From: Candidatus Altimarinota bacterium
GTDB taxonomy: Bacteria > Patescibacteriota > Gracilibacteria > CAIRYL01 > GCA-016699755
Reading direction: 5' to 3'
Length of the DNA: 48,677 nucleotides
Assembly (NCBI GenBank): GCA_025210675.1
Contig: JAOARU010000020.1
Span: forward strand, 1 to 48,677
In this document: piece after piece, positions 6,123-45,518 of the stretch
Layout: every line of letters starts with the position of its first letter
Numbering within the stretch: position 1 is the stretch's first letter
Notes under the pieces: generated by a model
Database searches by the model: none
Told to the model about the DNA's origin: nothing
What the model saw: the letters and a program-made list of their open reading frames with translations, nothing else
Program-made: the position numbers and the translations under genes

Positions 6123-6989
6123 GTGAATAAATATCTAATATATTTATTTTGTGGCGTACTTGCTTTTATTCCAGCTCTGATTTGGCTAATTATCTGGTAC
6201 AAAAAAGACTCAGAGCAGCCAGAGCCAAAGAAGATGATTCTTGAGAGTTTTTATCTGGGGTGTCTTTCGGTGATGCCTTTTTTTGGGATTAAATATGCTA
6301 TGAATCAGGCTGATGATTTGCAGGATTTGTGGTACGAATTTGCCAAAAATACACTCTATTTGTCTCAGGTTATTTTGATTTTACTGCTTGCTTTTCTTGA
6401 GGAGAGTATTAAGCATTTTGCTGTCCTTAGGCTTGGTAAAAGCCTGAAAATTGAATTTGATCAGATAGTAGATGGGGTTATTTATTCAGTATCTTGCGCT
6501 TTGGGATTTGCATTTATGGAAAATATTATCTATTTTGCAAATAATTTTTATGGAGAAATTAATGCAAGTTTTTTGTATTTGTTTGCATTTAGAAGCTTGG
6601 GAACAATGCTGGGGCATGCTATATTTTCCGGAATATTTGGGCTGTTTTGGGGTTTTGCTTTTTTGAGTATGAGTATTACCAATAAGCACAATTTTTCAGT
6701 ATCAAATATCTGGCACAAGCTCACAGACACGCTCAGGCTGCATATCATTAGAGATCATGTACTAAGGGGTAGATCTTCTACAAAAGGTCATGAAAAAGGT
6801 GATTTGGTCAGAGAAGCCCTAATAGTAGCTACCCTGCTTCATGGGCTTTTTAATATATTTGTAAGTTTTGAAATAATGGGGAAATCATTGACTTTTATGG
6901 TAGTTCCGCTTTTGATGGGTGGATTTGTATTTTTGTCTCATTCGTTCCTGCAAAAGAAAAATTTAAAAATTTGGAAAAAGGCGATTTGA
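6123..6989 (+). CDS. PrsW-family intramembrane metalloprotease
   Basis: 288 residues with about seven or eight hydrophobic segments. The PrsW signature residues are present: Glu93-Glu94-x-x-Lys97 (FLEESIKH), Glu133 (FMENIIYF), His165 (LGHAIFSG) and His240 (LLHGLFN). These form the proposed metal site in the membrane. PrsW of Bacillus cleaves the anti-sigma factor RsiW, but most relatives have unknown substrates. The start is GTG with no Shine-Dalgarno; TGATATAAT six bases upstream suggests a leaderless transcript. A soluble, charged insert lies at about 185-230. No anti-sigma or alternative sigma gene lies beside it, so the substrate cannot be inferred. Confidence 0.88.
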   Translation: MNKYLIYLFCGVLAFIPALIWLIIWYKKDSEQPEPKKMILESFYLGCLSVMPFFGIKYAMNQADDLQDLWYEFAKNTLYLSQVILILLLAFLEESIKHFAVLRLGKSLKIEFDQIVDGVIYSVSCALGFAFMENIIYFANNFYGEINASFLYLFAFRSLGTMLGHAIFSGIFGLFWGFAFLSMSITNKHNFSVSNIWHKLTDTLRLHIIRDHVLRGRSSTKGHEKGDLVREALIVATLLHGLFNIFVSFEIMGKSLTFMVVPLLMGGFVFLSHSFLQKKNLKIWKKAI

Positions 6990-7014
6990 TTTTTTAAAGA
7001 AATTTTGAGAAAAT
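6986..7014 (+). promoter_or_regulatory. promoter with GAAAAT minus-10
   Basis: TTGATT (6986-6991), 17 bases, then GAAAAT (7009-7014) preceded by TGA. The ATG at 7022 follows seven bases later, so the mRNA would be almost leaderless. It overlaps the end of the preceding gene. Confidence 0.5.
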
Positions 7015-7021
7015 TTAGCCA

Positions 7022-7393
7022 ATGACTCAGGCAGACGACAAAACTAAAGGCTTAATAATATCAGAAGATGCTAGATTACTGCATCCTGATCTTGTGAATA
7101 TGATTTCAAAAAGTGTATCTATGGATACTGACGAGAAGAATTACTGGTTATCAGTACTTTCAATGATGTCAGATGAGCAGATAGGCGAGCTAACGTCTAT
7201 CTTGGAAGACGAAGCAAAAAAACTCAATGAAATAGGACACCAATACGAAGAAAAACTCACAGAAGAAGAACAAAAACGCTTAATGGAAGAGCGAGAAGAA
7301 AGAAAAAAACAAAGAATCCAAGAAGAGGCACAGCACAAAGCTGAATCAGAGGAGCAAATGGAGGACTTGTTGGATCAATTGGAAAATTTATGA
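7022..7393 (+). CDS. small charged coiled-coil protein, unknown function
   Basis: 123 residues. Residues 1-65 look like a small helical domain (LLHPDLVNMISKSVSMDTDEKNYWLSVLSMMSDEQIGELTSIL), and residues 66-123 form a long charged helix rich in Glu, Lys and Arg, ending in acidic residues. There is no signal peptide or membrane segment. The stop codon overlaps lspA by ATGA, so the two are translationally coupled. I do not recognise the family. Confidence 0.75.
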   Translation: MTQADDKTKGLIISEDARLLHPDLVNMISKSVSMDTDEKNYWLSVLSMMSDEQIGELTSILEDEAKKLNEIGHQYEEKLTEEEQKRLMEEREERKKQRIQEEAQHKAESEEQMEDLLDQLENL

Positions 7394-7839
7394 TGCCTAT
7401 ATTTTTATTGACGGTTTTGTTTTTTGGAATTGATTTAATAAGCAAATATTTGCTTGTTGAGTTTTTAAAAAATGAAGAAGTGCAAATAGTCGGCGATTTT
7501 CTAACGATCAAAATAGTCAAAAATCCTGATTTGGCATTTTCAATCCCCTTTCCACACTTAGCAAAAATTATCTTGTCGATTGTTATAATTGGTGTTTTTG
7601 TGTACTTTGTATACTTGGAAAGACCATTAAGCAAATTAAAGACCTTGGCAGTCAGTATGATACTTGGTGGGGGTTTGGCGAATTTCTTAGAAAGATTAGC
7701 ATTTGGTGAAGTTGTTGATTTTATTGATTTTAGTTTTTATCCGTCTTTTAACTTAGCTGACACATTTATAGTGCTTGGTGTAGGGATATATCTATGGAAT
7801 GATATTAAGACAAAATCTATTGAAAAAAAACCAGAATAA
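7390..7839 (+). CDS. lspA: lipoprotein signal peptidase LspA
   Basis: 149 residues with four membrane segments. This signal peptidase II cleaves the signal peptide of diacylglyceryl-modified prolipoproteins. The family motifs are visible: KNPDLAFSIP (about 44-53), GGGLANFLERL (93-103), and the catalytic pair Asp110 (EVVDFIDF) and Asp124 (FNLADTFI). The GNxxDR motif is altered to ANFLER. Its start overlaps the preceding stop. It works after Lgt, encoded at 13150-13959, on lipoproteins such as those at 31081 and 43161. Confidence 0.95.
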   Translation: MMPIFLLTVLFFGIDLISKYLLVEFLKNEEVQIVGDFLTIKIVKNPDLAFSIPFPHLAKIILSIVIIGVFVYFVYLERPLSKLKTLAVSMILGGGLANFLERLAFGEVVDFIDFSFYPSFNLADTFIVLGVGIYLWNDIKTKSIEKKPE

Positions 7840-7869
7840 GAGTAAAATATAAAGAATAAGTAAAAATAA

Positions 7870-8475
7870 ATGGATCAAAAAACCTTTAACATATCAGACA
7901 TGGTTCTAAGAGTGTTTCCGGCTCTTGCGGGAGGATTTTTAGGTACTGGAGTTTTCTTGCTGATGTTTCTCTTTTTGCAAAGTCCTGCTAATGAAAATAT
8001 TGAAAATATTGTCTTTTCTATATTTTCAATTATTGTTATTTCTTTTGTGGGAGGCATATCTAGCAATGTACTGGCGTCAGTATTTCTCACTATTGCAGAT
8101 GGTGGAAAATTTCAAAACAAGGCAACATCAGTCATAAATGTTTTTTTCTTGAATATATTGATATTTTTGGCGACATTGCCATTTTTAATCATCAGCAAGG
8201 AGAATGCGCTTTATATTTCGGGGATTTATTTTATATTTTCTGCTATGATAAGCGCTTTGGTTCTTAGTATTGACAGCAATGGCAGATTGTCAGTTATGGA
8301 GAGTGCTGGGGTTGTGTTTTCAGGATTTTTTTTGATGCTTGGTTTTATTAAATTATTTGAATCAGGAGGAGAGGCAATGCTTGCGATTTTGCTTTTTATT
8401 ATCCCATTTAGCTGGTTGATTATATCGCTTTTTATGGGACTTGGAGAGCTTTTTGAGAGTTTACTCAGGAGATAA
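7870..8475 (+). CDS. multi-pass membrane protein, unknown function
   Basis: 201 residues with five or six hydrophobic helices separated by short loops, and an N-terminal cytoplasmic stretch (MDQKTFNISDMVLRVFP). It lies between lspA and yidC in a run of envelope genes. No motif pointing to catalysis is visible and I do not recognise a family. There is no Shine-Dalgarno sequence. Confidence 0.75.
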   Translation: MDQKTFNISDMVLRVFPALAGGFLGTGVFLLMFLFLQSPANENIENIVFSIFSIIVISFVGGISSNVLASVFLTIADGGKFQNKATSVINVFFLNILIFLATLPFLIISKENALYISGIYFIFSAMISALVLSIDSNGRLSVMESAGVVFSGFFLMLGFIKLFESGGEAMLAILLFIIPFSWLIISLFMGLGELFESLLRR

Positions 8476-8504
8476 TTGCAAAAAAAACCTATTTGTGAGA
8501 GAAT
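8476..8504 (+). promoter_or_regulatory. yidC promoter with GAGAAT minus-10
   Basis: TTGCAA (8476-8481), 17 bases, GAGAAT (8499-8504) preceded by TGA. The yidC ATG lies 21 bases downstream of the minus-10. Confidence 0.5.
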
Positions 8505-8525
8505 TTATGAGATTTTTTCACAAAA

Positions 8526-9752
8526 ATGGATCAAGAAAGAATGAAAAAGACAATGCAAGACGCTTTTAAGAGCACTGTAAATATGTTGCTCATATTTTTT
8601 GTTGCTTATTTTTTAGTGGGTTTATTTTTGCCAAGTGAAGAGGAAAAAAAGGCTCAAGAATCATCTCCAATCATAGTATCAACACATAAAGATGATTGGG
8701 TAAAATATCAGCTTGTGGATTTTACAATCAAAAACAACACAGATCAGCCAATAGTTATTGCTGAATCACAAAATCCTTCTGAAAAAATTACATTTGAAAA
8801 AGAAAATCAACAAAGCAAGGAGTTTGAAGAAATCCAAATCCAAAGAGATCAAATCAGCGAAGTAAGGACACTCGAACCAAAACAATCAATTACTCTGAGC
8901 TTTTCAAGATGGAATAATGAGCTTTTTGGTGAAGAAGGAGATTATAAAATCTGCCTCAATAGTCAAAGTGAAAAATACTGCACAAAATTTGCCTTGGAAA
9001 ATCCAGGGGTATTTCGAAGTGTATGGAGAGGGATTTTCTTTAAGCCAATTTTTAATATATTGATTTTTTTTGTAAGTTTTTTGCCAAATCATAGTCTGGC
9101 TTTGGCTATATTTATCTTGACCTTAATCATTAAGATAATTCTGATTGGACAAAGCAAAAAAGCTCTTGTACAGCAAAAAAAGATGCAAAAAGTTCAAGAG
9201 GAAATTGAAAAAGTTAGAAAAAAACACGCAGGAGATCAACAAAAAATAGCAGAAGAGACGCTTTCTGTCTGGAAAAAGCACAAGGTAAATCCAGTTGGTT
9301 CTTTTATGCCTATGTTTATTCAGTTTCCTGTTATGATTGCGCTTTTTTATGTGGTAAAAGATGGATTAATGCCTCATAATTCTGTTTATTTATGGCCATT
9401 TTTGAGTGATTTTTCATTGGATATAGTGTCTAAGGAGTTTTTTGGAATATTTAGCTTAGACGATAGAAATATATGGTATCTGGCTGTTTTTATTGGTTTA
9501 TTGCAATTTGTATCTATGAAGCTCACGATGCAGAAAAGTAAAAAAGTAAAAGAGCTAAAAAAAGAGACTACCAAAAAACAAGATCAGATGGCAGATCAAA
9601 TGAAGATGATGAATACAAGTATGATGTATGTAATGCCTTTGTTGATAGTATTTTTCTCGTATAATATGCCTGCCGCAGTTGGCATATATTGGGGTATATC
9701 TACACTGTTTTCAATAGGACAACAATTGGTGCTAAATAGGGAAAAACATTAA
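8526..9752 (+). CDS. yidC: membrane protein insertase YidC
   Basis: 408 residues. YidC/Oxa1 inserts and folds membrane proteins. Residues about 16-34 are a first transmembrane helix, followed by an exported domain (about 40-160), shorter than the P1 domain of E. coli. The conserved insertase core starts near 175, with the cytoplasmic coiled-coil hairpin (KKALVQQKKMQKVQEEIEKVRKK..., about 212-245) and KVNPVGSFMPMFIQFPVMIALFYVV (about 255-280). The last helices include MMYVMPLLIVFFSYNMPAAVGIYWGIS. No Shine-Dalgarno precedes the ATG. Confidence 0.95.
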   Translation: MDQERMKKTMQDAFKSTVNMLLIFFVAYFLVGLFLPSEEEKKAQESSPIIVSTHKDDWVKYQLVDFTIKNNTDQPIVIAESQNPSEKITFEKENQQSKEFEEIQIQRDQISEVRTLEPKQSITLSFSRWNNELFGEEGDYKICLNSQSEKYCTKFALENPGVFRSVWRGIFFKPIFNILIFFVSFLPNHSLALAIFILTLIIKIILIGQSKKALVQQKKMQKVQEEIEKVRKKHAGDQQKIAEETLSVWKKHKVNPVGSFMPMFIQFPVMIALFYVVKDGLMPHNSVYLWPFLSDFSLDIVSKEFFGIFSLDDRNIWYLAVFIGLLQFVSMKLTMQKSKKVKELKKETTKKQDQMADQMKMMNTSMMYVMPLLIVFFSYNMPAAVGIYWGISTLFSIGQQLVLNREKH

Positions 9753-9782
9753 TCGAAGAGGGTTTAGATTTTTTGAGACATT

Positions 9783-9811
9783 TTGCAGCAATTAGCTAAA
9801 AGTGTTACAAT
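9783..9811 (+). promoter_or_regulatory. relA promoter, leaderless geometry
   Basis: TTGCAG (9783-9788), 17 bases, TACAAT (9806-9811). The ATG at 9818 begins six bases after the minus-10, so the predicted transcript starts at the start codon. Confidence 0.5.
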
Positions 9812-9817
9812 CAGTAT

Positions 9818-10591
9818 ATGATCTCCATTGAGAAAATCATAAACAAGGCCAAGAAAAAAATTCCATCACTCAATGAACAAAGAGTATTGGACGCTTATAA
9901 TTTTGCCAATTTGTGCCACAGTGGACAAAAGAGAGCATCTGGAGAGGATTATATATATCATCCTCTTGCTATTGCTGATATTATACTAGATTTCCTGCCC
10001 GATGAAGATGCGCTTCTAGCGACACTGTTGCATGATGTAACGGAAGACTGTGGGATAAAAGTAGAAGAAATCAAAAAAAGATATGGTCCTGTGGTAGCTG
10101 AGCTTGTTAGTGGCATGGAGAAATTGTCTCATGTAAAAGCATATGGACAAGAGCGCCAAATCGGGAGCTTGAGAAAGATGTTTCTGGCAATGGCAAAAGA
10201 TATAAGAGTGGTTATTATTAAGCTTGCAGATAGGCTTCACAATATGCAATCTCTGCATTTTTTAAGACCAGATAAGCAAAAACGCATAGCAGAAGAAACG
10301 TTGACAATATACGCTCCTATTGCTGCTAGGCTGGGTATCTATGACCTCAAGAGTCCACTTGAAGATTTGTCGTTTTTTTATTTACAACAAGATAAATACA
10401 CGCTCGTAGCTGAGCAAATGAAGAAGCACGAGCCATATAGAACTCGTATATTAAAAAATGCTAAAAAATATCTCTCAAGTACACTGCATCAAGACGGAAT
10501 CAAAGGCGAAATAACAGGAAGAATCAAGCATTATTATAGTATTAATAAGAAAATGGAACGTAAAAGTATGGAGAGCATAGATGATCTATGA
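9818..10591 (+). CDS. relA: RelA/SpoT family (p)ppGpp enzyme, N-terminal part (HD hydrolase, start of synthetase)
   Basis: 257 residues. The HD-type ppGpp hydrolase domain is complete and looks active: YIYHPLAIA (about 46-54), LLHDVTED (67-74) and KLADRLHNM (about 141-149). The last part, GEITGRIKHYYSINKKMERKSMESIDD, is the beginning of the synthetase domain, so the break falls inside the synthetase fold. The frame ends at TGA 10589-10591, while the rest of the protein continues in the +1 frame from 10581. Restoring two bases (CTATGAT to CTATATGAT) would give the expected DDLYDIFALRII and a normal protein of about 718 residues. Confidence 0.9.
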   Translation: MISIEKIINKAKKKIPSLNEQRVLDAYNFANLCHSGQKRASGEDYIYHPLAIADIILDFLPDEDALLATLLHDVTEDCGIKVEEIKKRYGPVVAELVSGMEKLSHVKAYGQERQIGSLRKMFLAMAKDIRVVIIKLADRLHNMQSLHFLRPDKQKRIAEETLTIYAPIAARLGIYDLKSPLEDLSFFYLQQDKYTLVAEQMKKHEPYRTRILKNAKKYLSSTLHQDGIKGEITGRIKHYYSINKKMERKSMESIDDL

Positions 10592-11969
10592 TATATTTGC
10601 ACTTCGTATTATTGTGCCTAGTGTAAAGGATTGCTATGTGGTTTTGGGGCGTATTCATCAGTATTGGACACCACTTGCTAAGAGGTTTAAGGATTATATA
10701 GCAGTTCCAAAGCCAAATGGGTATAGATCGCTTCATACGACTGTGATTGGGCTTTCAGGCATTAAAAACAAATCAGTTCCAATAGAAATCCAGATCAGAA
10801 CTCAGAATATGCAACACGAAGCCCAATACGGTATCGCTGCTCACTGGGCGTATAAAGAAGACAAGAAAAAAACCGAAGAAAAAAGCGTATGGGTACAGCA
10901 TTTGGTTGAACTTGAAAATAAAATCAAAAGCAATAAGGAGTTTGTGGCTGATTTAAAATTAGACACATTTTCTGATCGCATATTTGTCCTGACTCCAAAT
11001 GGAGATATTAAAGATATGCCTAGAAATGCTACTCCTATTGACTTTGCTTTTGCTGTGCATACAGACATCGGACTCAGGACAAAAGCTGCCAAAGTAAATG
11101 GCAATATAGTACCGCTTGATCACACATTAAAGAATGGTAACGTAGTGGAAATAATAACCTCTAAGAAAAATGAGGTCAATCAAAACTGGATTTCTTTTGT
11201 AAAGACTGCTGCTGCTAAAAATAGGATTAAAAATTATCTAAAATCACAAAACAAGGACAAGATAATAAGAGACGGAAAAGAAGCACTCAATAAAGAATTG
11301 ATAAGGTTTGACATAGGAGAAATGGATCCTCATATGCATATCCTCAAGAATATCAACGGACAAAAAAGAAACATTAAAGAGCGTGAAGAAGTCTTGGAAA
11401 GAATAGGTAATGGCTCGCTCTCTCCGCTAATCATAGTTAAATCTATCTTAAAAGATCAGGGTAAATATCAAGAACAAGAATACATAGGTAAAAGCACAGA
11501 TGATGTAGCAGAAGACAAAAAACCAGGAGAAATATTGATCTCAGGGGAAAAAGAAATTCCAATCAAAATTTCAAATTGTTGTAATCCAATGGAAGGAGAG
11601 CCAATTATTGGCTTTACTACAAGGGGCGGACATGTAAGTATCCATCATGTAAAATGCAAAATGATCCTAGGACTTGATCCGCATAGGCTCATAGATGCTA
11701 AATGGACTTCAGATAAATCAGAAATAGTGGAGCTGATAGTTAAAACTAATTCAAATAGAATAGGGCTTCTAAAGGATATAATAGATGTATTTGTGCGCTA
11801 TAATATCAGTATTGAAAAATTTTCATATTCTGAAAGAATAAATCCCCTCACTTCAAATATACATTTGCAAATTACTGTATCGGATTTTTCAAAAATAGCC
11901 CTAATTATGGACAAGCTAGAAGATGTAAATGGTGTTGCAGAGGTTATGAAATCCAATATATTAAACTAG
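10581..11969 (+). CDS. relA: RelA/SpoT family (p)ppGpp enzyme, C-terminal part (synthetase, TGS, ACT)
   Basis: 462 residues read in the +1 frame relative to the upstream part, overlapping it by 11 bases. Synthetase motifs are present: YDIFALRIIVPSVKDCY, PKPNGYRSLHTTV (about 43-56), VPIEIQIRTQNMQHEAQYGIAAHWAYK. The TGS domain follows (DRIFVLTPNGDIKDMPRNATPIDFAFAVHTDIG, about 130-162), then a zinc-finger-like SNCCNPM...HHVKC segment, and a C-terminal ACT domain (VELIVKTNSNRIGLLKDIIDVF). Together with the upstream part it makes one bifunctional stringent-response enzyme. The ATG at 10581 could in principle be a coupled restart, but the split would cut the synthetase domain, so a sequence error or recent mutation is more likely. 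Confidence 0.9.
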   Translation: MIYDIFALRIIVPSVKDCYVVLGRIHQYWTPLAKRFKDYIAVPKPNGYRSLHTTVIGLSGIKNKSVPIEIQIRTQNMQHEAQYGIAAHWAYKEDKKKTEEKSVWVQHLVELENKIKSNKEFVADLKLDTFSDRIFVLTPNGDIKDMPRNATPIDFAFAVHTDIGLRTKAAKVNGNIVPLDHTLKNGNVVEIITSKKNEVNQNWISFVKTAAAKNRIKNYLKSQNKDKIIRDGKEALNKELIRFDIGEMDPHMHILKNINGQKRNIKEREEVLERIGNGSLSPLIIVKSILKDQGKYQEQEYIGKSTDDVAEDKKPGEILISGEKEIPIKISNCCNPMEGEPIIGFTTRGGHVSIHHVKCKMILGLDPHRLIDAKWTSDKSEIVELIVKTNSNRIGLLKDIIDVFVRYNISIEKFSYSERINPLTSNIHLQITVSDFSKIALIMDKLEDVNGVAEVMKSNILN

Positions 11970-32414: not shown

Positions 32415-33626
32415 ATGAAATTCATGATACTGACACTTTATCCTGATATGTTTAATTGCTCTTTTTCAGATAGCATATTAAAGAGGGCGCAGGAAAATGG
32501 CTTAATAGAGATAAGAACTAAAAATATAAGGGACTTCGCAGAAGGAAAAAGACGCAATGTAGATGACACTCCATTTGGAGGAGGTGCAGGCATGCTGATG
32601 AGCCCAAAACCTCTTCATGGAGCTATATCATGGGCAAAAGAACAAAATCCAAACTCAAAAGTAATATACCTAAGCGCTCAAGGTAAAAGATTTGATCAAG
32701 AAAAAGCCTTGAAAATAGCCCGAGAACAAAAAGACCTCATTTTAGTAACTGGACATTTTGAAGGAATAGATGAGCGTATAGTTGATAGTATGGTAGATGA
32801 AGAAATTTCTATTGGGGATTTTGTATTAACCGGAGGAGAGATACCTGCAATGTGTATCATTGATTCTGTATCTAGGCTGCTGCCAAATGTGATCAATGAA
32901 AAAAGTACAGAACAAGAAAGCTATTCGGAAGAGCTTTTTTTTCAAAGAGAGTATCCCCAGTACACCCGCCCTGCTGATTTTATGGGGCAAAAAATACCAG
33001 AAGTATTGCTTTGTGGTGATCATCAAAAAATAGAAGACTGGAGAATGTCTCATATAAAAGGGCTTTCACAGGCTGAAAAAAGAGTGTTTAACTGGAGATT
33101 GAGTAATTTTCCAAAAAAGGGGCGCAAGGTTGAATTGAGGATATTTCACAGAAGCGATATAGACCACTGGCTAAAATACCTAAACGATGAGGAGGTGTGT
33201 AGGTTTTTGACGATTTCTCCACCATTTACCCATGAAATTGAGGAAGAATTTTATCTAAGTTCAATTAAGGATCTAAATATTATACCGCTTTCGATATTGG
33301 ACAAAAAAAACTCTGTGCCAATCGGTACGCTTAGTCTGGAAATCACAAAAACAAACCCGCACTGCGCAAGACTTGGGATCTGTATATTTAATAAGGATTA
33401 TTGGAATAATGGCTATGGTACTGATGCTCTGAAAACTGCTATTGATTTTGTATTTAATGATGCTGATTTAAAAAGAGTTGAATTAATGGTTTTTGAGGAT
33501 AATAAGAAAGCCAAACACGTCTATGAAAAAGTCGGATTCAAGGAGGTCGGACTAGCTAATAAAAAAACTCTAAAAAACGGTAAATTTATTAATACTTATA
33601 TAATGGAATTGATTAAAGATGAATGA
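32415..33626 (+). CDS. trmD: fusion of tRNA (guanine37-N1)-methyltransferase TrmD and a GNAT acetyltransferase
   Basis: 403 residues in one uninterrupted frame. Residues 1 to about 232 are a complete TrmD: GGGAGMLMSPKPL (56-68), YLSAQGKRFDQ, LVTGHFEGIDERI (110-122), the trefoil-knot SIGDFVLTGGE (132-142), YPQYTRPADFMGQKIPEVLLCGDHQKIEDWR (180-210). Residues about 238-403 are a GNAT domain of the RimJ/RimL type, with the acetyl-CoA loop in IFNKDYWNNGYGTDALKTAIDF (325-346) and ENKKAKHVYEKVGF-type ending. TrmD makes m1G37 in the nucleus of the anticodon loop to prevent frameshifting. The acetyl acceptor is unknown. The usual neighbours rimM and rplS are absent. Confidence 0.93.
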   Translation: MKFMILTLYPDMFNCSFSDSILKRAQENGLIEIRTKNIRDFAEGKRRNVDDTPFGGGAGMLMSPKPLHGAISWAKEQNPNSKVIYLSAQGKRFDQEKALKIAREQKDLILVTGHFEGIDERIVDSMVDEEISIGDFVLTGGEIPAMCIIDSVSRLLPNVINEKSTEQESYSEELFFQREYPQYTRPADFMGQKIPEVLLCGDHQKIEDWRMSHIKGLSQAEKRVFNWRLSNFPKKGRKVELRIFHRSDIDHWLKYLNDEEVCRFLTISPPFTHEIEEEFYLSSIKDLNIIPLSILDKKNSVPIGTLSLEITKTNPHCARLGICIFNKDYWNNGYGTDALKTAIDFVFNDADLKRVELMVFEDNKKAKHVYEKVGFKEVGLANKKTLKNGKFINTYIMELIKDE

Positions 33627-33879: not shown

Positions 33880-34708
33880 AGCCCAAGATATCCATAATCT
33901 AGCAAAAAAACTAATCAGAGAAGCAAGTTTTATACTGCCAGAGGAAGTAAGAAGTAAGCTTGATGAATTAAATAAAAAAGAGCAAAACACTTTGTCTAAA
34001 AAAGCGCTCTCTGAAATAACTGAAAATTATAAAATCGCAGAACAAGAAAGTTTGCCACTATGTCAGGATACTGGTTGTGCTTGTTTTTTTATTAAAATGG
34101 GGCATCAGGTGGAGCTAGAAGAAGTACTAGAAATCACCCTAAACAAAGCCACATCTGAGGCTTATGCAGAATACTATCTCAGAAAATCAATTTGTGAAAA
34201 ACCTCTCTTTAAAAGGGTTAATACAGGAGACAATACACCCTGCTTCGTGCATATCGAACAAGTAGAGGGTGATCAGTTTGAAATCGTTTTTTTGCCAAAA
34301 GGAGGAGGTGCAGAAAACAAAAGCAGATTCACAATGTTAGCCCCATCAAAAGGCGTTCAGGGGGTAATGGAGTTTATCAGAGAAACGCTTGAGTTGGCTG
34401 GCGGTAGTGCTTGTCCTCCTTTTTTGGTTGGAGTCGGGGTTGGTGGCATGTTTGATACAGTTGGATCACTCGCTAAAAAAGCCATAATCAGAGGAATCGG
34501 CACAGACAATCTGGATAGTGATTTTGCAAAACTAGAACAAGATATAAAAAAAGACCTATCTTCATTAAAAATGGGAGCAATGGGACTAGGGGGCAATGAG
34601 ACCATACTTGATTTAAATATAGAATACTCACCTTGCCATATTGCATCGCTTCCAGTTGCAGTAAATATCCAGTGTCATTCAGCTCGTATTAGCAAAGGAT
34701 CTCTTTAA
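33866..34708 (+). CDS. class I fumarate hydratase, alpha subunit
   Basis: 280 residues of the two-subunit iron-sulfur fumarase/tartrate dehydratase alpha chain. It interconverts fumarate and malate. Three cysteines fit the 4Fe-4S cluster ligands: Cys66 (LPLCQDTG), Cys183 (GGSACPPFLVGVGVGG) and Cys270 (NIQCHSARISKG). PKGGGAENKSRFTMLAPSKG is also typical. The beta subunit, which normally follows, is not downstream; a convergent gene overlaps its end. The beta gene must be elsewhere or missing. Confidence 0.93.
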   Translation: MRKIKAQDIHNLAKKLIREASFILPEEVRSKLDELNKKEQNTLSKKALSEITENYKIAEQESLPLCQDTGCACFFIKMGHQVELEEVLEITLNKATSEAYAEYYLRKSICEKPLFKRVNTGDNTPCFVHIEQVEGDQFEIVFLPKGGGAENKSRFTMLAPSKGVQGVMEFIRETLELAGGSACPPFLVGVGVGGMFDTVGSLAKKAIIRGIGTDNLDSDFAKLEQDIKKDLSSLKMGAMGLGGNETILDLNIEYSPCHIASLPVAVNIQCHSARISKGSL

Positions 34709-37700
34709 GCTGCCATGTAAGGATTGCCGCCGCTTTCTTTAACGTCATCTCTACCTCCAATAGACCAATCCCATTTTCTAAATTTCTGACCTTTGTGGTC
34801 ATCTGCGTACAGCTTTACGCATTTATCTACTGAAGCCTGCAATCTATCAGGATCATGCTCAAATAATCTTTGTGTAAAGGTATGAATAAACTCATAATAC
34901 CAATCAATATTAGCGGGATTACTTCCCTCTGGGATATCATTTATGTCTTTTTTTGTAAGTTTACCATTTTCGTCTATGCTTTCTGGGTCATAAAGAGTAA
35001 ACCAAAAATCATTTTCTAAGATATTTTTTAATTTATCAAAATCTGGCTTTTTTGAAAATAATTCATTAAAAAATTCAGGACAAGCAGCACGTGTAATCTC
35101 CCTTAGATGCTCTGCTGTTTGACCAGTAGATAATCCTGCACCATAACCATCAGCCCTAGGAGGGTAGTTTATATCATCAGCTGAAAATCTAAACAGCTTA
35201 TAGTCTCCTTTTTTGACCTTATTGAATAGGATGCCTTCAAGATTCATGGCGTACCCCATCTGTCTCGCAAACTCTTCCTTTAGATCATCATATGATATGT
35301 CTTCTTTGTGGCGAGCCACACTTGTAAAATGATGCAATATGCCATTTAGAGCATTTGGATAAGCAGTAGCTTGATACTTTGGTGTACCATCTATCTTGCT
35401 AGTAATATTGGATGCCATACTTGTACTTCCTATGGCTGCAATCATCTGCATCCAGTCATGATCCCATTTAGCACTCATCTGACCCGCAGATTTGAATGTG
35501 CGTTCATAGACTGATTTTTCTGTCATCCAGTTTACATGAAACCACTCTATATATTCACTTGGCACACTACCATCAGAGGTTTCGAACATGGCTCCCCATT
35601 TACACCATTCTTCAATTGTTGGTTTTTTCTTGTCTATTAGCTCAAGAGGTGGAACATTATTGGATTGTCCAGCAAAAACAACCGGCCTCTCAGGAGACAA
35701 GATCCCCTCATAAACACCCTGTATTAAGTAATAAAGCATTGTCTCTACGTCCATTTTTCCCGCCTCAATCGCATAATCTAAAAACATCTCATAACGATGA
35801 GGGTCAACTTTTTTGCCTTTTTTGGTGTCTGTAAGCATTTTTTTAACGTGATTTGTAAGATAATTTTGACAATTAATAGCATCACGCTTGTATTCTGATT
35901 TTTTAGAATCAAGATTTGAATTATTTAACCTTTCCCATTCTGAAAAAGTATCACCATCATAAAGAGATGTGATTACTTTATTTAACTTTTGATAAAGCAC
36001 AACTAGGTCATCTCCATCACTCGGACGAAAACAAACCGACGACTGCAGCCTATGAAAAGCACCCCAAAGCCTCTCATCTCTCCAGTTAATACGCCCTATA
36101 TTGGCTAATTGACCAAGGCAAGCTTTTAGTTCATCTTTGTTATTGGTTTTTTCAATTACATCATAGATTTGCCATGCGTCTTTATTGCTAAGTGCATCTT
36201 CATATTTTGAAACCTCTTCTTTTTCTGCGGACTCAGAAAGAAGGTCGTATTCAGAGGCGAGCTGAGCATTAATACCATCAAACACGGCCGAACCAACTGC
36301 ACCTGCACGAGCCTTTGAGTTTCTTTGGTGTTTTCTTTCCATGTACTCCATAAAAGTAGACCAAATAGTCTTCATATCTGCCATAGACACAAAGGTGGTC
36401 TCATTGTATAATTTCATGAAATAATTTTCGCTATTTTCACATTCTTCAGCTATACGAGCCAAAATACCGGAGCAATCATCTGCTAATTTGGTCATATCGC
36501 TATTAATATCTACAAATGTAGATTCGTCAACTTCGCCTAATTTGGCCATATCTTCAAGTTGAGCAACATAATCTTTTATCTTTGCTATAAAAATATCTCT
36601 ATCTGTGACATCTTTTGAAGCAGCAATATTTTCTAGTTTTTTGTTTAAAATTGTCTTTTTATTTTCAAAAATTGACCTTTGCTTGTTATATCTTTCTTCA
36701 GAAAGCGGGTTTTTGTTTTTAATTTCAACCCCTAAAGAGCCTTTTGCAAATTTTTGTTCAGATGAAGCAAAAAAACTATTTTTGTTCAAATGTTCACCCG
36801 CAGATGACCTAAAACTCTCATCAGTCGGAAGAGATCCTTCTAAGATAAGATCCAATTCAGATTGAGAAAAATATTGCTTGATTAATCTAATCATTGCGCC
36901 AACAGGTATAGTAACTGTATCTCCCGCAAGATAATGTGCCAAAATCTCATCAGGAAGGTCTTCTTTTGCATATATTTTTTCAAAAGCCTTTTTTTGACGC
37001 TGAAAGCTTAGGTCGTCTTTAAGTCTTGCATGAACCTCTTTATAAAAAGCCTTTGAGAGTTTTTTGTTACTCAAAAAATCAACAATATGCACTGCCTCAT
37101 GCGAAATAATATCAGAATTGTCCTGAAACGCCTCTTTTACATATAAATGAAGTTTTTTTTGTCCAAGTGTAGAATTTTTGAAATCTACAAAAGCTTTAGC
37201 TTCATGTCCGTATTTTTTTTCAAATTGCTCATTCGGCAAAACACAAAACACATCTGAACCATCAGGATTTTTGAGTCTTTTTATGAATTCAATATCAACA
37301 CTGCCCTTTAAGATAGAGTTTTTGAGGTTAATAAAATCATCTAAACATTTAGCATTTCTGTCTTCCTGGATTTCTTTGATTGAAATAGGTTTTATAGGTT
37401 TTGCAAGAGCTTCATTTTTTGATTTTATTTGATCAAAAAAATCTCTATTCTTGCCAAGTCCCTGCTCAACAGAATCCAGAGCAAGGCTAAGATCAGCCCT
37501 AAGCAATGGATCTGATTCTATAACAGTATCCAGCTCTGAGCTAGGAATCTGAGCAACATTTCTTATCGCATCTTCTGTCTCATTAATGGCTTCATTTGGA
37601 GCATTTCTCTCATTTAAAAGCTTTAATCTATCTTGAAGTGATGTTTTTAGTTCAAATATTTTTGAATTTGCATCATTTGTCTCCTGTTTGAGTTTTTTGA

Positions 37701-39321
37701 ATTTTTCAGATAAGACTTCATTTGACTCAGCAAAAAGCATACTGAGAGCTTCTGACTCATCTTTTTTAGCATCATAAAAAAGTCTCCTTAGTAATTCTGC
37801 CTGCATTCCGCTGGATTTTTTAGAGAAAAAATCTTGTAAAAATTCACTATTAGCAAATATTTCTCTCTCATTTGAATCTAATGTTTTTTCTAAAAATTGC
37901 TCATGTGATGCTAGATTTAATTTATCAAAATTTACTAGCTCATCAACCATTAAGCCGTATTCAGAAGACAGCTCCTCGGATTCATTAAAAAAAGCATCAT
38001 CAAGTTCACTAATGCCATGGGCTAACTCTTTTTTTAGTTCTTTTATGCCAATAGGCTGCCCTTGTTCATCTCGCACAGCTATATGATCCTTGAGTCCAAA
38101 TATCTCTTGAAGCTCTGAAATATCTACATCTTCATTGTGCAATAAAGATCTAGCTCCTGCTTCATGTAGGCTGCTTAGTTCTTTTTTTAATTCTTGTTTT
38201 TTTAGCTGAAATCTTGCTAGTTTTGATTTAAAATCAGCAACTCTATTGTGAATTTTTTTAGCTAATTCATACTCCTCTTCTTGTATCCATTTATTTTGAT
38301 TTAGTTTTTCTGCTATCTCTGATTCAGTTTCTGATTGCCTAATAATATCAAGCTGCTTTGATCTGATCTGTGATTTTTTTAAGTAATTTATAAAAATCTC
38401 TTTATGGTCATGTGAAAACTCCTGCTCAGATAAATATTCAATAAAATTTGAGTCTTTTAAGTTTGCGCTATCTATGAGATCCAAAGTCGCTCTATGTTCA
38501 CCAAAAACAAGTATCAAAACCTTTGTAATAAGATGATTCATATCATCAAGAATCTCTTGTGCTTGCTCAACAGAATCACTCAGGGCTTCTTTGAATTTAC
38601 GCATAGCATCTTGCTGAATCATATCAACAAAAGCTTGCTTGCTTTCATAGGTCTCTAATTGAAGTAGTTTTTTTGCTTCTTTTAAATGCTCGTCCGAAAG
38701 TACCCCAGAAATAGCGGAAATTATCTCGTCGTGTTTTTCTGCTTGAGTTTTGTTGCTTGAATCAATATCGCTAATAATCGCTGAAAGCTCCCTGGAATCA
38801 CGCATTTTGCGTGATGATTCTTCTACAAAGTCTTCATTTAGCCTAAGTCTCACCTCTTCATGTAATTCTTTTACAACTGGAAAAGCTTTTGTTTTGTTTA
38901 AAAAATCAACATCAAGCTCACTCTTTAATTCAAAACAAAAGTTTTTGTTTTTTGCCAGTGTTCTAATATGGTTAATGAATTTCGGAAAAAGAGGACTAGG
39001 AAGCTCAGAAAAGGCATAATCAAGAGGTGTGTTCATCAAAAGCTCTTTGTCATTATCTCCGATCTCTTTCTTCTTGCAAGCTGCAATTAATTCTGATTTT
39101 TCTGATTCGATATAGGCAGAAAAAGCCGCTTTTTCTTGAGGAGAAAGCCTTGTGGAATTTAGGTGTTTTTTGATTTTCTTTTTTTGAGATAAGCTTGGAG
39201 ATTTAGATGATTTCAAAAGATCTCTAAGTTCTTGTATCTCAGATTTACTTGATCTTATAAACTCAGGATTATGAGCTTTGTTAAAGATTAGCCTCTGATG
39301 TAAGAAAAAATCCCCTATCAT
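34705..39321 (-). CDS. giant 1538-residue protein with an internal HEAVH zinc-metalloprotease motif
   Basis: The longest gene here. There is no signal peptide and no membrane helix visible. Residues 1 to about 650 are highly charged, mainly helical and coiled-coil-like. At 741-745 the motif HEAVH occurs in DIISHEAVHIVDFLSNKKL, a HExxH zinc site, with Glu792 (LPDEILAHYL) a candidate third ligand as in gluzincins. Residues about 850-1538 contain further helical regions, a Trp-rich stretch (KWDHDWMQMIAAIGSTSMASN) and end with GGRDDVKESGGNPYMAA. I know no family for the whole protein. It stands alone behind its own promoter and ends convergently with the fumarase gene. A cytoplasmic or non-classically exported protease, possibly for contact with a host, is only inference. 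Confidence 0.8.
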   Translation of the reverse strand: MIGDFFLHQRLIFNKAHNPEFIRSSKSEIQELRDLLKSSKSPSLSQKKKIKKHLNSTRLSPQEKAAFSAYIESEKSELIAACKKKEIGDNDKELLMNTPLDYAFSELPSPLFPKFINHIRTLAKNKNFCFELKSELDVDFLNKTKAFPVVKELHEEVRLRLNEDFVEESSRKMRDSRELSAIISDIDSSNKTQAEKHDEIISAISGVLSDEHLKEAKKLLQLETYESKQAFVDMIQQDAMRKFKEALSDSVEQAQEILDDMNHLITKVLILVFGEHRATLDLIDSANLKDSNFIEYLSEQEFSHDHKEIFINYLKKSQIRSKQLDIIRQSETESEIAEKLNQNKWIQEEEYELAKKIHNRVADFKSKLARFQLKKQELKKELSSLHEAGARSLLHNEDVDISELQEIFGLKDHIAVRDEQGQPIGIKELKKELAHGISELDDAFFNESEELSSEYGLMVDELVNFDKLNLASHEQFLEKTLDSNEREIFANSEFLQDFFSKKSSGMQAELLRRLFYDAKKDESEALSMLFAESNEVLSEKFKKLKQETNDANSKIFELKTSLQDRLKLLNERNAPNEAINETEDAIRNVAQIPSSELDTVIESDPLLRADLSLALDSVEQGLGKNRDFFDQIKSKNEALAKPIKPISIKEIQEDRNAKCLDDFINLKNSILKGSVDIEFIKRLKNPDGSDVFCVLPNEQFEKKYGHEAKAFVDFKNSTLGQKKLHLYVKEAFQDNSDIISHEAVHIVDFLSNKKLSKAFYKEVHARLKDDLSFQRQKKAFEKIYAKEDLPDEILAHYLAGDTVTIPVGAMIRLIKQYFSQSELDLILEGSLPTDESFRSSAGEHLNKNSFFASSEQKFAKGSLGVEIKNKNPLSEERYNKQRSIFENKKTILNKKLENIAASKDVTDRDIFIAKIKDYVAQLEDMAKLGEVDESTFVDINSDMTKLADDCSGILARIAEECENSENYFMKLYNETTFVSMADMKTIWSTFMEYMERKHQRNSKARAGAVGSAVFDGINAQLASEYDLLSESAEKEEVSKYEDALSNKDAWQIYDVIEKTNNKDELKACLGQLANIGRINWRDERLWGAFHRLQSSVCFRPSDGDDLVVLYQKLNKVITSLYDGDTFSEWERLNNSNLDSKKSEYKRDAINCQNYLTNHVKKMLTDTKKGKKVDPHRYEMFLDYAIEAGKMDVETMLYYLIQGVYEGILSPERPVVFAGQSNNVPPLELIDKKKPTIEEWCKWGAMFETSDGSVPSEYIEWFHVNWMTEKSVYERTFKSAGQMSAKWDHDWMQMIAAIGSTSMASNITSKIDGTPKYQATAYPNALNGILHHFTSVARHKEDISYDDLKEEFARQMGYAMNLEGILFNKVKKGDYKLFRFSADDINYPPRADGYGAGLSTGQTAEHLREITRAACPEFFNELFSKKPDFDKLKNILENDFWFTLYDPESIDENGKLTKKDINDIPEGSNPANIDWYYEFIHTFTQRLFEHDPDRLQASVDKCVKLYADDHKGQKFRKWDWSIGGRDDVKESGGNPYMAA

Positions 39322-39338
39322 ATGATAAAAATCATATT

Positions 39339-39367
39339 ATTTTATCATAAAATAGAGAAAAAAGCAA
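39339..39367 (-). promoter_or_regulatory. promoter of the giant protein gene
   Basis: On the minus strand TTGCTT (39367-39362), 17 bases, TAAAAT (39344-39339) preceded by TGA. The ATG is 17 bases downstream. An ATCATATGAT palindrome (39317-39326) covers the start codon, with a further ATGAT...ATCAT repeat beside it, possible regulatory features. Confidence 0.5.
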
Positions 39368-39475
39368 AAACAACTAGGCTATCTTTTTTGAACTTGACTT
39401 GATGTCAATTAAATAAGCCTGAGCTGCAAATGAAAATTGTTCAGGGGCATCTTTTTTATTGGTAGTTTTTTAATA

Positions 39476-39508
39476 TACAAAAAAAACGAGTGTAAATAAT
39501 ACTCTCGT
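39476..39508 (-). terminator. terminator of the 23S-5S rRNA operon
   Basis: On the minus strand ACGAGAGT (39508-39501) pairs with ACACTCGT (39493-39486), with one A-A mismatch, and is followed by a long T run. It lies 48 bases after the 5S gene. Confidence 0.75.
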
Positions 39509-39555
39509 TTTATTTAAAAATCAATCATTTTAGCTATAACCGATTGAATGCAATA

Positions 39556-39673
39556 TTCTTGGCATCGACCTACTCTCGCACTGCTGAACAGCACTACCAT
39601 TGGCGCTGAAAGGCTTAACTACTGTGTTCGAAATGGGAACAGGTGTACCCCTTTCGCTACAGACACCAAGAAT
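39556..39673 (-). rRNA. rrf: 5S ribosomal RNA
   Basis: About 118 bases on the minus strand. The core GGGTACACCTGTTCCCATTT, CGAACACAGTAGTTAAGCCT and the end GCGAGAGTAGGTCGATGCC are typical 5S sequences, and the first and last bases pair (ATTCTTGG with CCAAGAAT). The pairing continues beyond the mature ends to 39551-39562 and 39666-39677, giving a 12-bp processing stem. Confidence 0.95.
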
Positions 39674-39703
39674 ATTGAACTCAATCAGTATAGTAATTTC
39701 CGT

Positions 39704-39724
39704 AGAATACACGTCAAACAAGGT
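39704..39724 (-). other. 23S processing stem, 3' arm
   Basis: Twenty-one bases complementary, with three G-U pairs, to the 5' arm at 42776-42796. Together they close a long stem around the 23S rRNA, the expected substrate for RNase III-type processing. Confidence 0.75.
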
Positions 39725-39762
39725 GTATAAACGTATTGCATAAACACAAAGGTTTATAACAA

Positions 39763-42774
<3,012 letters not shown>

Positions 42775-43160: not shown

Positions 43161-45518
43161 TTATTTTTTAAAAAATTGCAAATCTAAATTTGACCTAAGC
43201 CTTTTTATTGACTCCTCTGGTCGATCTGCGTAGTTTTTCCTTTGAAGGTATTTGCCTTGCCAGAGCCTATGGTTATAATCTGCAAAATCTCCATATTGTC
43301 TACGAAAATCCCTAATCATTTCTCTATAATCCTTCTTATGAAGTATATCGGAAGCTCTCTGAAAATACTGACTTAACTCATCATTGGTCATGTTTTCAAA
43401 GGTGTAGTAAATCAGATTATTATAAGAGGAATCTCTCTGGCGTACAAAATTTAAAAAACTCTGTTCATCAACAGGATTAGCATGGATAAAGGCAATATCA
43501 GCGTCCCACATAGCAAAACCCCATTTCTCAGTATCACTATCCATATATACATAAAAATTATGCGTCAAAGAGTCATAAGCATCAGACAAATAAAGCAAAA
43601 AGGCATAATCAAATATATTTTGTTTGTTAATTGAATTAATCAAATCAGGATCTTTGCGATCGAGAGCATCAATTAAATCCAGGAGGGCATCTGGCTCTTT
43701 TTTGATTTTGTAATTTTCCAGAGTGGTTGCTTTGTCTTTTTGAAATGAAAGGTTGCTAGGATAAATTGAGTCTATATTTTTAGCATAAAAATAATAATCA
43801 TAATTTATATTTCTTGAGTGAAAGAAGTGCTTCTTGATAGCTTCTGTCATTTGATACATGCCCATCTGTACGCCGTTTAAATCAACCATTACAGGTGTAT
43901 AATCTGGTGCTGGATTGCCCAAATCATTAAACATTGTGTACATCACTTTTTCTTGCATTCTGGTTTCATCAGAGATCAGGCTTCTGAGTTTAAACTCATT
44001 GCGATCCTCTATAAACTCATCTAATTCACTTGGGGTTTTGGCGAAATCTTTAAAGCTCTCGATAGTAAAGGATTGTTTGATATAGCTTCTACTAGAATTA
44101 CCTCTGGTTTTTAAAAGTATGGAGTAGCCCCTCACGTCACCATTTGGATAGAGCATTTCAAGGTAGGCTCTTTTTCTTTGATTTGACTCCCTGTTTAAGA
44201 AAAAATCTTCAAAAGATTTATTTTCTGTGTATATCCTGAGTCTCAAAATATCACCATTAGGTGCTTTTTCTTGATTCGGCAAGAGTGCGGCAGAGCTTAA
44301 AAATTCTATTTCCCTTGATGAGTCTATGTCTTTAAATTCTGCGAATCTATGACGAGGAATCTTATTTTTTAACATCAAGATCTTGCCATCATTAAATTTG
44401 ACTTTAATTTCAAAATCAAATCTTTCAAATTCTACATTTAATTTTGCATATTCTATGTCTTTCAATCTTACCCCCTCTATATTGTAAAGATAGAAATAAA
44501 TCCCATTATTAATCTTGTAATAAATATCGACACCATTTTCCGACTGTTCTAGTTGAGCATTTATATACTCATCATCATTGAACCCATTGCTCTCTTCAAA
44601 GCTAAGCACAAGATCATCTCTTATATAGACAGGCTCAAGCTCTGAGGCTTTTTCTGGTTTTTTATAATCCTTGAGCGCTTCTCCGTCCTTATAAGTCAGG
44701 AAATTATCCAATATAACAGATATGTCCTCTCTAAAAAGAGTCTTGTTTGCCCATATTGTATCTTTTTCGATCTGATCGAATATGCCTTCATAAAAAGCTT
44801 TGCTAATCAAATCGTAATCCACATGATTTTTACTGAATTTTTCAAAGTAGATATTTTCTAGATATTTTTGATCAAAATCAAAATCATTTATCTCAAATGC
44901 CTTAAACAAAAACTTTAAAAATCCCCACAAGTTGACCGAGAGCTCACCATGAAATTCACCTCTTATGCCTTTTACTATGCCTTTTTCCTTGGCAAAACAA
45001 ATTCTAGGATCATTTTCATCACTAAAACAATCTGTATAAATAGAAAAATCATCATTTGGATAAGCTAAGTCAATCACTCTAATCAAGGCTTCTCTTCTGG
45101 TAATAGGTGTTAGATCACGCTCTTTTGAGAATTTTTCAAAACTTAGATTAAAAACCACACCCTGGTTATTGGCATTAAAACAATAATCAGGCGCACATAA
45201 AATCCCTTTTTTGTACTGGATATTGCTATTTTTTAGGAAAATCAAAAAATAAGGCTCCTTCGAAGTAGCACTCTGCACATAATATATATCCTGAAATTTC
45301 TTTACCTCAAAATTATTTGGATAATAAAAGCTAAAATCACCATTAATATGCTGAAAATAATTTAATTCACTGGTGTTTTCTTGCTCAAAATAAATTGTCT
45401 TTATCTCTTCTGCCTCCTGTGCCTTTTTTTTTGTCTCTTGTTGCTTCTTGTCATGAAAACTGCAAGCAGAAAAGCCAATTATAAAAACAATAAGTGTATA
45501 AATTAGGTATTTTTTCAT
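43161..45518 (-). CDS. CotH-kinase-family lipoprotein with SLH-like N-terminal region
   Basis: 785 residues. MKKYLIYTLIVFIIGFSAC is a lipoprotein signal with Cys19 as lipidation site, followed by a charged linker. Residues about 130-185 (LTPITRREALIRVIDLAYP...DCFSD...RICFAKEKGIVKG) resemble an S-layer homology repeat, and a second weaker one follows near 255-275. The CotH kinase domain spans about 400-785: RGNSSRS (from Arg472), the region around MYQMTEAIKKHFF and the metal-binding WDAD (671-674). CotH proteins are atypical protein kinases that phosphorylate secreted proteins; here it would sit on the cell surface. It is coupled to the VTC gene upstream by a shared base. Confidence 0.9.
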   Translation of the reverse strand: MKKYLIYTLIVFIIGFSACSFHDKKQQETKKKAQEAEEIKTIYFEQENTSELNYFQHINGDFSFYYPNNFEVKKFQDIYYVQSATSKEPYFLIFLKNSNIQYKKGILCAPDYCFNANNQGVVFNLSFEKFSKERDLTPITRREALIRVIDLAYPNDDFSIYTDCFSDENDPRICFAKEKGIVKGIRGEFHGELSVNLWGFLKFLFKAFEINDFDFDQKYLENIYFEKFSKNHVDYDLISKAFYEGIFDQIEKDTIWANKTLFREDISVILDNFLTYKDGEALKDYKKPEKASELEPVYIRDDLVLSFEESNGFNDDEYINAQLEQSENGVDIYYKINNGIYFYLYNIEGVRLKDIEYAKLNVEFERFDFEIKVKFNDGKILMLKNKIPRHRFAEFKDIDSSREIEFLSSAALLPNQEKAPNGDILRLRIYTENKSFEDFFLNRESNQRKRAYLEMLYPNGDVRGYSILLKTRGNSSRSYIKQSFTIESFKDFAKTPSELDEFIEDRNEFKLRSLISDETRMQEKVMYTMFNDLGNPAPDYTPVMVDLNGVQMGMYQMTEAIKKHFFHSRNINYDYYFYAKNIDSIYPSNLSFQKDKATTLENYKIKKEPDALLDLIDALDRKDPDLINSINKQNIFDYAFLLYLSDAYDSLTHNFYVYMDSDTEKWGFAMWDADIAFIHANPVDEQSFLNFVRQRDSSYNNLIYYTFENMTNDELSQYFQRASDILHKKDYREMIRDFRRQYGDFADYNHRLWQGKYLQRKNYADRPEESIKRLRSNLDLQFFKK

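What the first reader, a model, noticed from the sequence alone, without database searches (positions are those of the whole stretch)
34705..39321. 1538-residue protein with a buried HEAVH metalloprotease motif
Seen: HEAVH at 741-745, Glu792 as candidate third ligand, long charged helical flanks, no signal peptide, own promoter. It takes nearly a tenth of the window. No known family covers it. Inference: an intracellular or non-classically secreted protease, perhaps for a host or prey interaction.
Basis: partly seen in the sequence, partly recalled or inferred. Interest (0 to 1): 0.75.

Follow-up and report, generated by a model that had tools for sequence, protein, structure and literature searches.

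The report
Secretion-linked giant protein with metallopeptidase domain
This window of a Peregrinibacteria genome (ultra-small bacteria, most of them thought to live on other cells) encodes a very large protein of a so far unnamed, class-wide family that carries a real zinc-peptidase-type domain and whose relatives are often encoded right next to type IV secretion genes, so it may be part of, or cargo for, the machine these bacteria use to reach other cells.

Summary
The ORF (34705-39321, minus strand, 1538 aa) and its HEAVH at 741-745 are real. The motif is not chance: His741, Glu742, His745 and Glu792 are the only invariant columns among 19 homologues that carry the domain (12-26% identity to the window), and a homologous domain folds confidently (pLDDT 87, pTM 0.82) with HExxH on a helix after three strands and the Glu on a later helix. 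No Pfam, NCBIfam, PHROGs or PDB sequence match covers it. The conserved part of the protein is an all-helical C-terminal module (about 962-1430), found usually once per genome in 157 of 288 genomes of its class and in none of about 343 other Patescibacteria genomes. In 34 of 68 relatives (12 families) the gene lies directly 3' of a VirB6-like gene; in a 13th family it lies directly 3' of a VirB3-like gene. The peptidase domain is optional: present in about 28 of 68, absent or degenerate in the rest. Best reading: a class-specific giant protein tied to the Patescibacteria type IV secretion system, most likely a substrate or docked component with a variable N-terminal payload that here includes a zincin. 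Delivery and substrate are inferred, not shown.

The parts
34705..39321 (-). gene for the 1538-aa protein; single copy in this genome
35032..36438 (-). conserved all-helical C-terminal module (residues about 962-1430); near-invariant D1063, G1076, G1188, P1224, R1274, D1287, H1288
   Evidence: A1 profile match E 3.7e-163 (the window is one of the rows of A1); conservation; pLDDT 80-90 over most of it
36808..37389 (-). zincin-type metallopeptidase domain (residues about 645-838)
   Evidence: A2 and A8 alignments, model of homologous domain pLDDT 86.7
37087..37101 (-). HEAVH, residues 741-745: His741 and His745 as zinc ligands, Glu742 as general base
   Evidence: invariant in 19 homologues; helix in model
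36946..36948 (-). Glu792, candidate third zinc ligand, in the motif [DES]-E-[LIF]-[FLY]-A
   Evidence: invariant column in A2; motif seen in nearly all domain-bearing members
39280..39300 (-). N-terminal motif HQRLIFN (residues 8-14), of the R-phi-phi-F type seen in many family members
   Evidence: strict form in 17 of 65 giants against 2 of 456 control ORFs; the window fits the looser form, 38 of 65 against 63 of 456; motif defined post hoc
37402..39240 (-). N-terminal charged region, poorly conserved in sequence and length
   Evidence: alignment occupancy and lack of conserved columns
39468..39515 (-). terminator-type hairpin and T run between the 5S rRNA and the gene
   Evidence: z -3.3

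Best explanation
The protein belongs to a giant-protein family restricted to the class Gracilibacteria (GTDB sense, including Peregrinibacteria) and tied to that class's type IV secretion system (T4SS). Its helical C-terminal module (962-1430) is the family-defining part. I infer that it docks on, or is recognised by, the VirB3/VirB6/VirB4-type inner-membrane machine. The long N-terminal part is a variable payload, which in this lineage includes a zincin metallopeptidase domain (about 645-838; zinc ligands His741, His745, Glu792; general base Glu742). I infer that the protein is passed by the T4SS to a contacted cell or acts at the contact, where the peptidase cuts a target protein or processes the giant itself. 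Shown by computation: the domain, its conserved site, the class restriction and the T4SS gene linkage in relatives. Inferred: zinc binding, catalysis, docking, delivery, target.
For: Site residues are the only invariant columns in 19 domain-bearing homologues and are seen again in most of about 28. The domain is confidently modelled with the expected element order; the best PDB fold match, though weak, is a metallopeptidase (4l7a; MATCAP further down) and viral matches include IrrE, SprT-like and 'lethal factor' proteins. C-terminal module: 157 of 288 class genomes, nearly always one copy; 0 of about 343 other Patescibacteria. Gene order: 34 of 68 giants lie directly 3' of a VirB6-like gene in 12 families, and f5 giants lie directly 3' of a VirB3-like gene, including peptidase-bearing ones (L035, L040, L122, L131). 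The VirB6-like family also occurs in other classes, where the three members inspected sit beside PrgI and VirB4 genes. The window's own genome holds the VirB3-like/VirB6-like cassette (G000:C56) and a VirB4-type ATPase (G000:C29). Fixed C-terminal module with variable N-terminal part is a common layout of T4SS substrates (general knowledge).
Against: In the window's own family and in f2 and f10 the gene is not next to T4SS genes, so the link is carried over from relatives. Usually one copy per genome and wide conservation suit a machine part as well as an effector. No T4SS secretion signal was identified. Some class genomes have the VirB6-like gene but no detectable giant. The window's own domain is less confidently modelled around Glu792. 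No significant structural match.
Confidence: 0.45

Rival explanations
1. It is a non-translocated cytoplasmic or membrane-proximal component of the class-specific T4SS (scaffold or assembly factor); the peptidase domain, where present, processes T4SS subunits or regulates assembly.
For: Usually one copy per genome, operon position after VirB6-like, conservation across 12-13 families. Peptidase optional, as expected of a regulatory add-on.
Against: Very variable N-terminal length and sequence; T4SS genes also occur in genomes without a detectable giant.
Confidence: 0.32
2. It is an ordinary intracellular protease or helical scaffold of this class with no functional tie to secretion; the operon adjacency is old but not functional.
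For: No signal peptide or TM segment; in its own lineage the gene stands alone after the rRNA genes.
Against: The adjacency is kept in 12 families at 20-30% protein identity, which non-functional gene order rarely survives.
Confidence: 0.17
3. It is a domesticated or degenerate polyvalent protein of a conjugative element or phage: a zincin-bearing giant once delivered with DNA.
For: T4SS-linked polyvalent proteins commonly carry zincin-like peptidases (PMC5512222); fold matches include a phage polyvalent protein.
Against: Conserved, nearly always single copy and class-wide; no hit in phage or plasmid records or viral contigs; no relaxase or phage gene recognised in the inspected neighbourhoods.
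Confidence: 0.04
4. HEAVH is a chance match with no zinc site.
For: 8% of shuffles contain HExxH; no significant structural match.
Against: The four site residues are the only invariant columns; confident domain model.
Confidence: 0.02

Closest known systems
Zincin metallopeptidases with HExxH + Glu (clan MA; for example DUF4344, the 4l7a type, ImmA/IrrE-like and WLM/SprT-like groups)
   Same: HExxH on a helix preceded by strands, downstream Glu on a later helix; weak DUF4344 matches for 4 of 19 members (best 1.4e-4); weak fold matches to 4l7a, IrrE and SprT-like proteins
   Different: No family model matches the window's domain; buried inside a giant protein; no significant structural match
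Polyvalent proteins of conjugative elements and phages (PMC5512222)
   Same: Very large multidomain proteins, T4SS-linked genes, zincin-like peptidase domain
   Different: Here class-wide and nearly always single copy, no relaxase recognised nearby, and a C-terminal module with no known relative
Patescibacteria T4SS (MPF-FATA-like; PMC12102498; reported there as essential for epibiotic growth in Ca. S. epibionticum)
   Same: VirB3-like, VirB6-like and VirB4-type genes in the same genomes, and VirB3/VirB6-like genes in the same operon as the giant in many relatives
   Different: No mention of such a giant or of a protease was found in the parts of that paper searched; the paper reports VirB6 as absent in Gracilibacteria, whereas a VirB6-like family is found here
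C-terminal-signal T4SS effectors (BID-domain and XVIPCD types; from general knowledge)
   Same: Conserved C-terminal module after a variable N-terminal payload
   Different: The module is about 470 aa and unrelated by any search made here; translocation untested

Membership tests
Zincin metallopeptidase (clan MA) | HExxH conserved in homologues that carry the domain | tested here: met
   invariant in 19, which were chosen for carrying the domain; one f5 member has EEKEH instead, a degenerate copy
Zincin metallopeptidase (clan MA) | downstream third ligand (Glu792) conserved | tested here: met
Zincin metallopeptidase (clan MA) | zincin fold with HExxH helix and ligand helix | tested here: inconclusive
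   element order fits in a confident model, but no significant Foldseek match and no coordinates to measure the site
Zincin metallopeptidase (clan MA) | zinc binding and proteolysis | not testable with these tools
   needs protein
DUF4344 or other named Pfam peptidase family | match above curated cut-off by the window protein | tested here: not met
   0 Pfam families for the window protein; only weak hits for other members
T4SS-associated protein | gene in operon with T4SS components | tested here: met
   met for the family: 34 of 68 after VirB6-like plus f5 after VirB3-like; not met at the window's own locus
T4SS substrate or effector | T4SS-dependent translocation into another cell | not testable with these tools
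   no assay; no known signal recognised
Polyvalent protein of a mobile element | encoded in a phage or conjugative element with relaxase or packaging genes | tested here: not met
   no relatives in phage, plasmid or viral records; class-wide distribution

The most novel reading that the evidence does not exclude
A class-wide giant protein, usually one per genome, is the main T4SS-delivered protein of Gracilibacteria/Peregrinibacteria: a new helical C-terminal translocation or docking module carries lineage-specific N-terminal payloads into host or prey cells, one of them a zincin peptidase.
Probability: 0.33. Interest if true: 0.8.

Novelty: new variant of a known kind. Interest (0 to 1): 0.57.

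Why it matters
How Gracilibacteria and Peregrinibacteria act on other cells is largely unknown, and a T4SS is reported as essential for epibiotic growth in a Saccharibacteria relative (PMC12102498). A conserved giant protein tied by gene order to that machine in this class gives a concrete candidate cargo or component with a testable active site. The work also turns up a VirB6-like family in a class where VirB6 was reported missing.

Tried and rejected
Pfam, NCBIfam, PHROGs and PDB sequence searches with the protein or with family profiles gave no family. Foldseek of the 914-residue model returned only generic helical-repeat matches, rejected as uninformative. A viral-contig scan and phage and plasmid searches found nothing, which argues against a mobile-element origin. 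The alignment of 28 C-terminal modules was too diverse for the contig scan; a 9-row alignment worked. A copy of the peptidase domain outside the giant was sought in 60 genomes; all 19 genomes with hits had them inside the giant. HEPIH in L134 was set aside as chance: its sequence context does not fit. A split-off peptidase in the upstream gene of peptidase-less members was checked and no HExxH was seen.

Full report
Observation. The ORF at 34705-39321 on the minus strand encodes 1538 aa. HEAVH is at 741-745. By composition a protein of this size has about 0.09 such motifs, and 8% of shuffles contain one, so the motif alone proves little. There is no signal peptide and no transmembrane segment by hydropathy. 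The gene lies after a 23S-5S rRNA pair, from which a terminator-type hairpin separates it. Promoter-like sites are at the shuffle level. Nothing in Pfam, NCBIfam, PHROGs or the PDB sequences covers the protein.

Family. A whole-genome search finds a homologue in 30 of 60 genomes (own included), mostly 1050-2030 aa where complete. The strongest matches are to the C-terminal third. A profile of that part (A1, residues about 960-1440) finds 157 of 288 genomes of the class, usually one copy each, and none of about 343 Patescibacteria genomes of other classes. Named records are Candidatus Peregrinibacteria, Gracilibacteria and unnamed Patescibacteria. Two of the Peregrinibacteria contigs have the lengths of G001:C32 (same family as the window) and G003:C160 (same order), so the window is most likely from Peregrinibacteria. 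The module is predicted all-helical, with pLDDT mostly 80-90, and has near-invariant D1063, G1076, G1188, P1224, R1274, D1287 and H1288. It has no recognisable relative.

Peptidase domain. Nineteen homologues from the first search carry a domain in front of the module whose only invariant columns are His741, Glu742, His745 and Glu792; these 19 were chosen because they carry the domain. The context is strand, HExxH helix, then a helix with [DES]-E-[LIF]-[FLY]-A. AlphaFold2 on a homologue's domain (L057), with the window's domain among the 11 aligned sequences, gives pLDDT 86.7 and pTM 0.82, with elements helix-helix-strand-helix-strand-strand-HExxH helix-helices-Glu helix. The window's own model shows the same strands and HExxH helix (block means mostly 64-85) but is poor around Glu792. 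Foldseek gives no significant match, but its top PDB hit is a metallopeptidase (4l7a, E 0.3; MATCAP further down), and viral hits include IrrE-type, SprT-like, 'lethal factor' and polyvalent proteins (E 0.016 or worse). Four members hit DUF4344 weakly. I take this as a divergent zincin with HExxH + Glu ligands; zinc and activity are untested.

The domain is optional. In a sample of 68 giants about 28 have it (families f1, f2, f5, f10, f12 and probably f25) and the others do not; one f5 member has a degenerate EEKEH. On a tree of the C-terminal module the label needs 5 changes against 21 in shuffles (that count includes L134, later set aside), so it is inherited in blocks with gains or losses. 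In 60 genomes the domain profile hits only giants.

Surroundings. In the window's lineage the gene stands alone. Elsewhere it often does not. In 34 of 68 giants, from 12 families, it follows directly (2-359 bp) a gene for a VirB6-like polytopic protein on the same strand, and in f5 it follows a VirB3-like gene directly (L035, L040, L122, L131, L140; L034 and L045 by coordinates). The cassette is VirB3-like, one or two unknown proteins, VirB6-like, giant. The VirB3-like protein of the window's genome matches Pfam VirB3 at E 0.0015 (below cut-off). The VirB6-like profile reaches other classes, where three inspected members sit immediately before PrgI and VirB4-type genes, and one of them matches TrbL/VirB6 at 0.007. 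The window's genome has the VirB3-like and VirB6-like genes at G000:C56 and a VirB4-type ATPase at G000:C29. Quinonero-Coronel et al. 2025 (PMC12102498) describe the Patescibacteria T4SS, note that VirB3 and TrsD of Gracilibacteria lie away from VirB4, and report VirB6 as absent there, suggesting extreme divergence; a search of its main text for protease, metallo and Peregrinibacteria found none.

Mechanism. Gene order kept over 12-13 families at 20-30% protein identity points to a functional tie with the T4SS. A fixed C-terminal module with a variable N-terminal part resembles T4SS substrates; usually one copy per genome also fits a machine component. I weigh substrate or docked cargo at 0.45 and non-translocated component at 0.32. 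The peptidase would act on a target-cell protein or on the giant itself, as proposed for zincins in polyvalent proteins (PMC5512222). Delivery, docking and target are inference.

Novelty. The peptidase domain is a new divergent branch of a known kind. The family, its C-terminal module and its T4SS link were not found described in the databases or papers searched, which does not exclude description elsewhere.

Noticed in passing
32415-33626 (+): 403-aa fusion of TrmD (tRNA guanine-N1 methyltransferase, E 3.6e-52) with a GNAT acetyltransferase (E 7.6e-20)
   Followed up: no
39557-42773 (-): 23S-5S rRNA pair with no 16S rRNA in the window: rRNA genes unlinked, or the 16S lies outside
   Followed up: no
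L106 (G000:C56) 6192-11714 and homologues: VirB6-like family in 54 of 60 relatives although a 2025 study reports VirB6 absent in Gracilibacteria; it sits with a VirB3-like gene and two unknown proteins (about 500-1000 and 200-400 aa)
   Followed up: partly
window 39280-39300 (-) and N-termini of L029, L117-L156: N-terminal R-phi-phi-F/Y-x-A motif, often followed by a low-complexity linker: 17 of 65 giants against 2 of 456 other ORFs; also in a T4SS-cassette protein (L109:6948-8849). Possible targeting signal; the motif was defined after the fact
   Followed up: partly
L023, L030, L031, L032, L048: An exported protein with a C-terminal TM segment (cohesin match, weak Fn3 match in L023) is encoded directly upstream of the giant in five order-level relatives; a homologue is elsewhere in the window's genome (G000:C29)
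   Followed up: partly
L044, L047, L038: About 2600-aa ORF with a signal-type N-terminus (in L047 with weak GH2, FG-GAP and invasin matches) directly after the giant in family f7
   Followed up: no
43161-45518 (-): 785-aa protein with a C-terminal CotH kinase domain (E 7.6e-30) encoded upstream of the 23S rRNA gene on the same strand
   Followed up: no
G018:C17 and G018:C38 (f12): VirB6-like and cohesin-type genes hold in-frame TGA codons, suggesting TGA reassignment, while the giant of the same genome (L033) has none
   Followed up: no
39310-39352 (-): AT-rich inverted repeat overlapping the start of the giant gene (z -2.2), possible regulatory element
   Followed up: no
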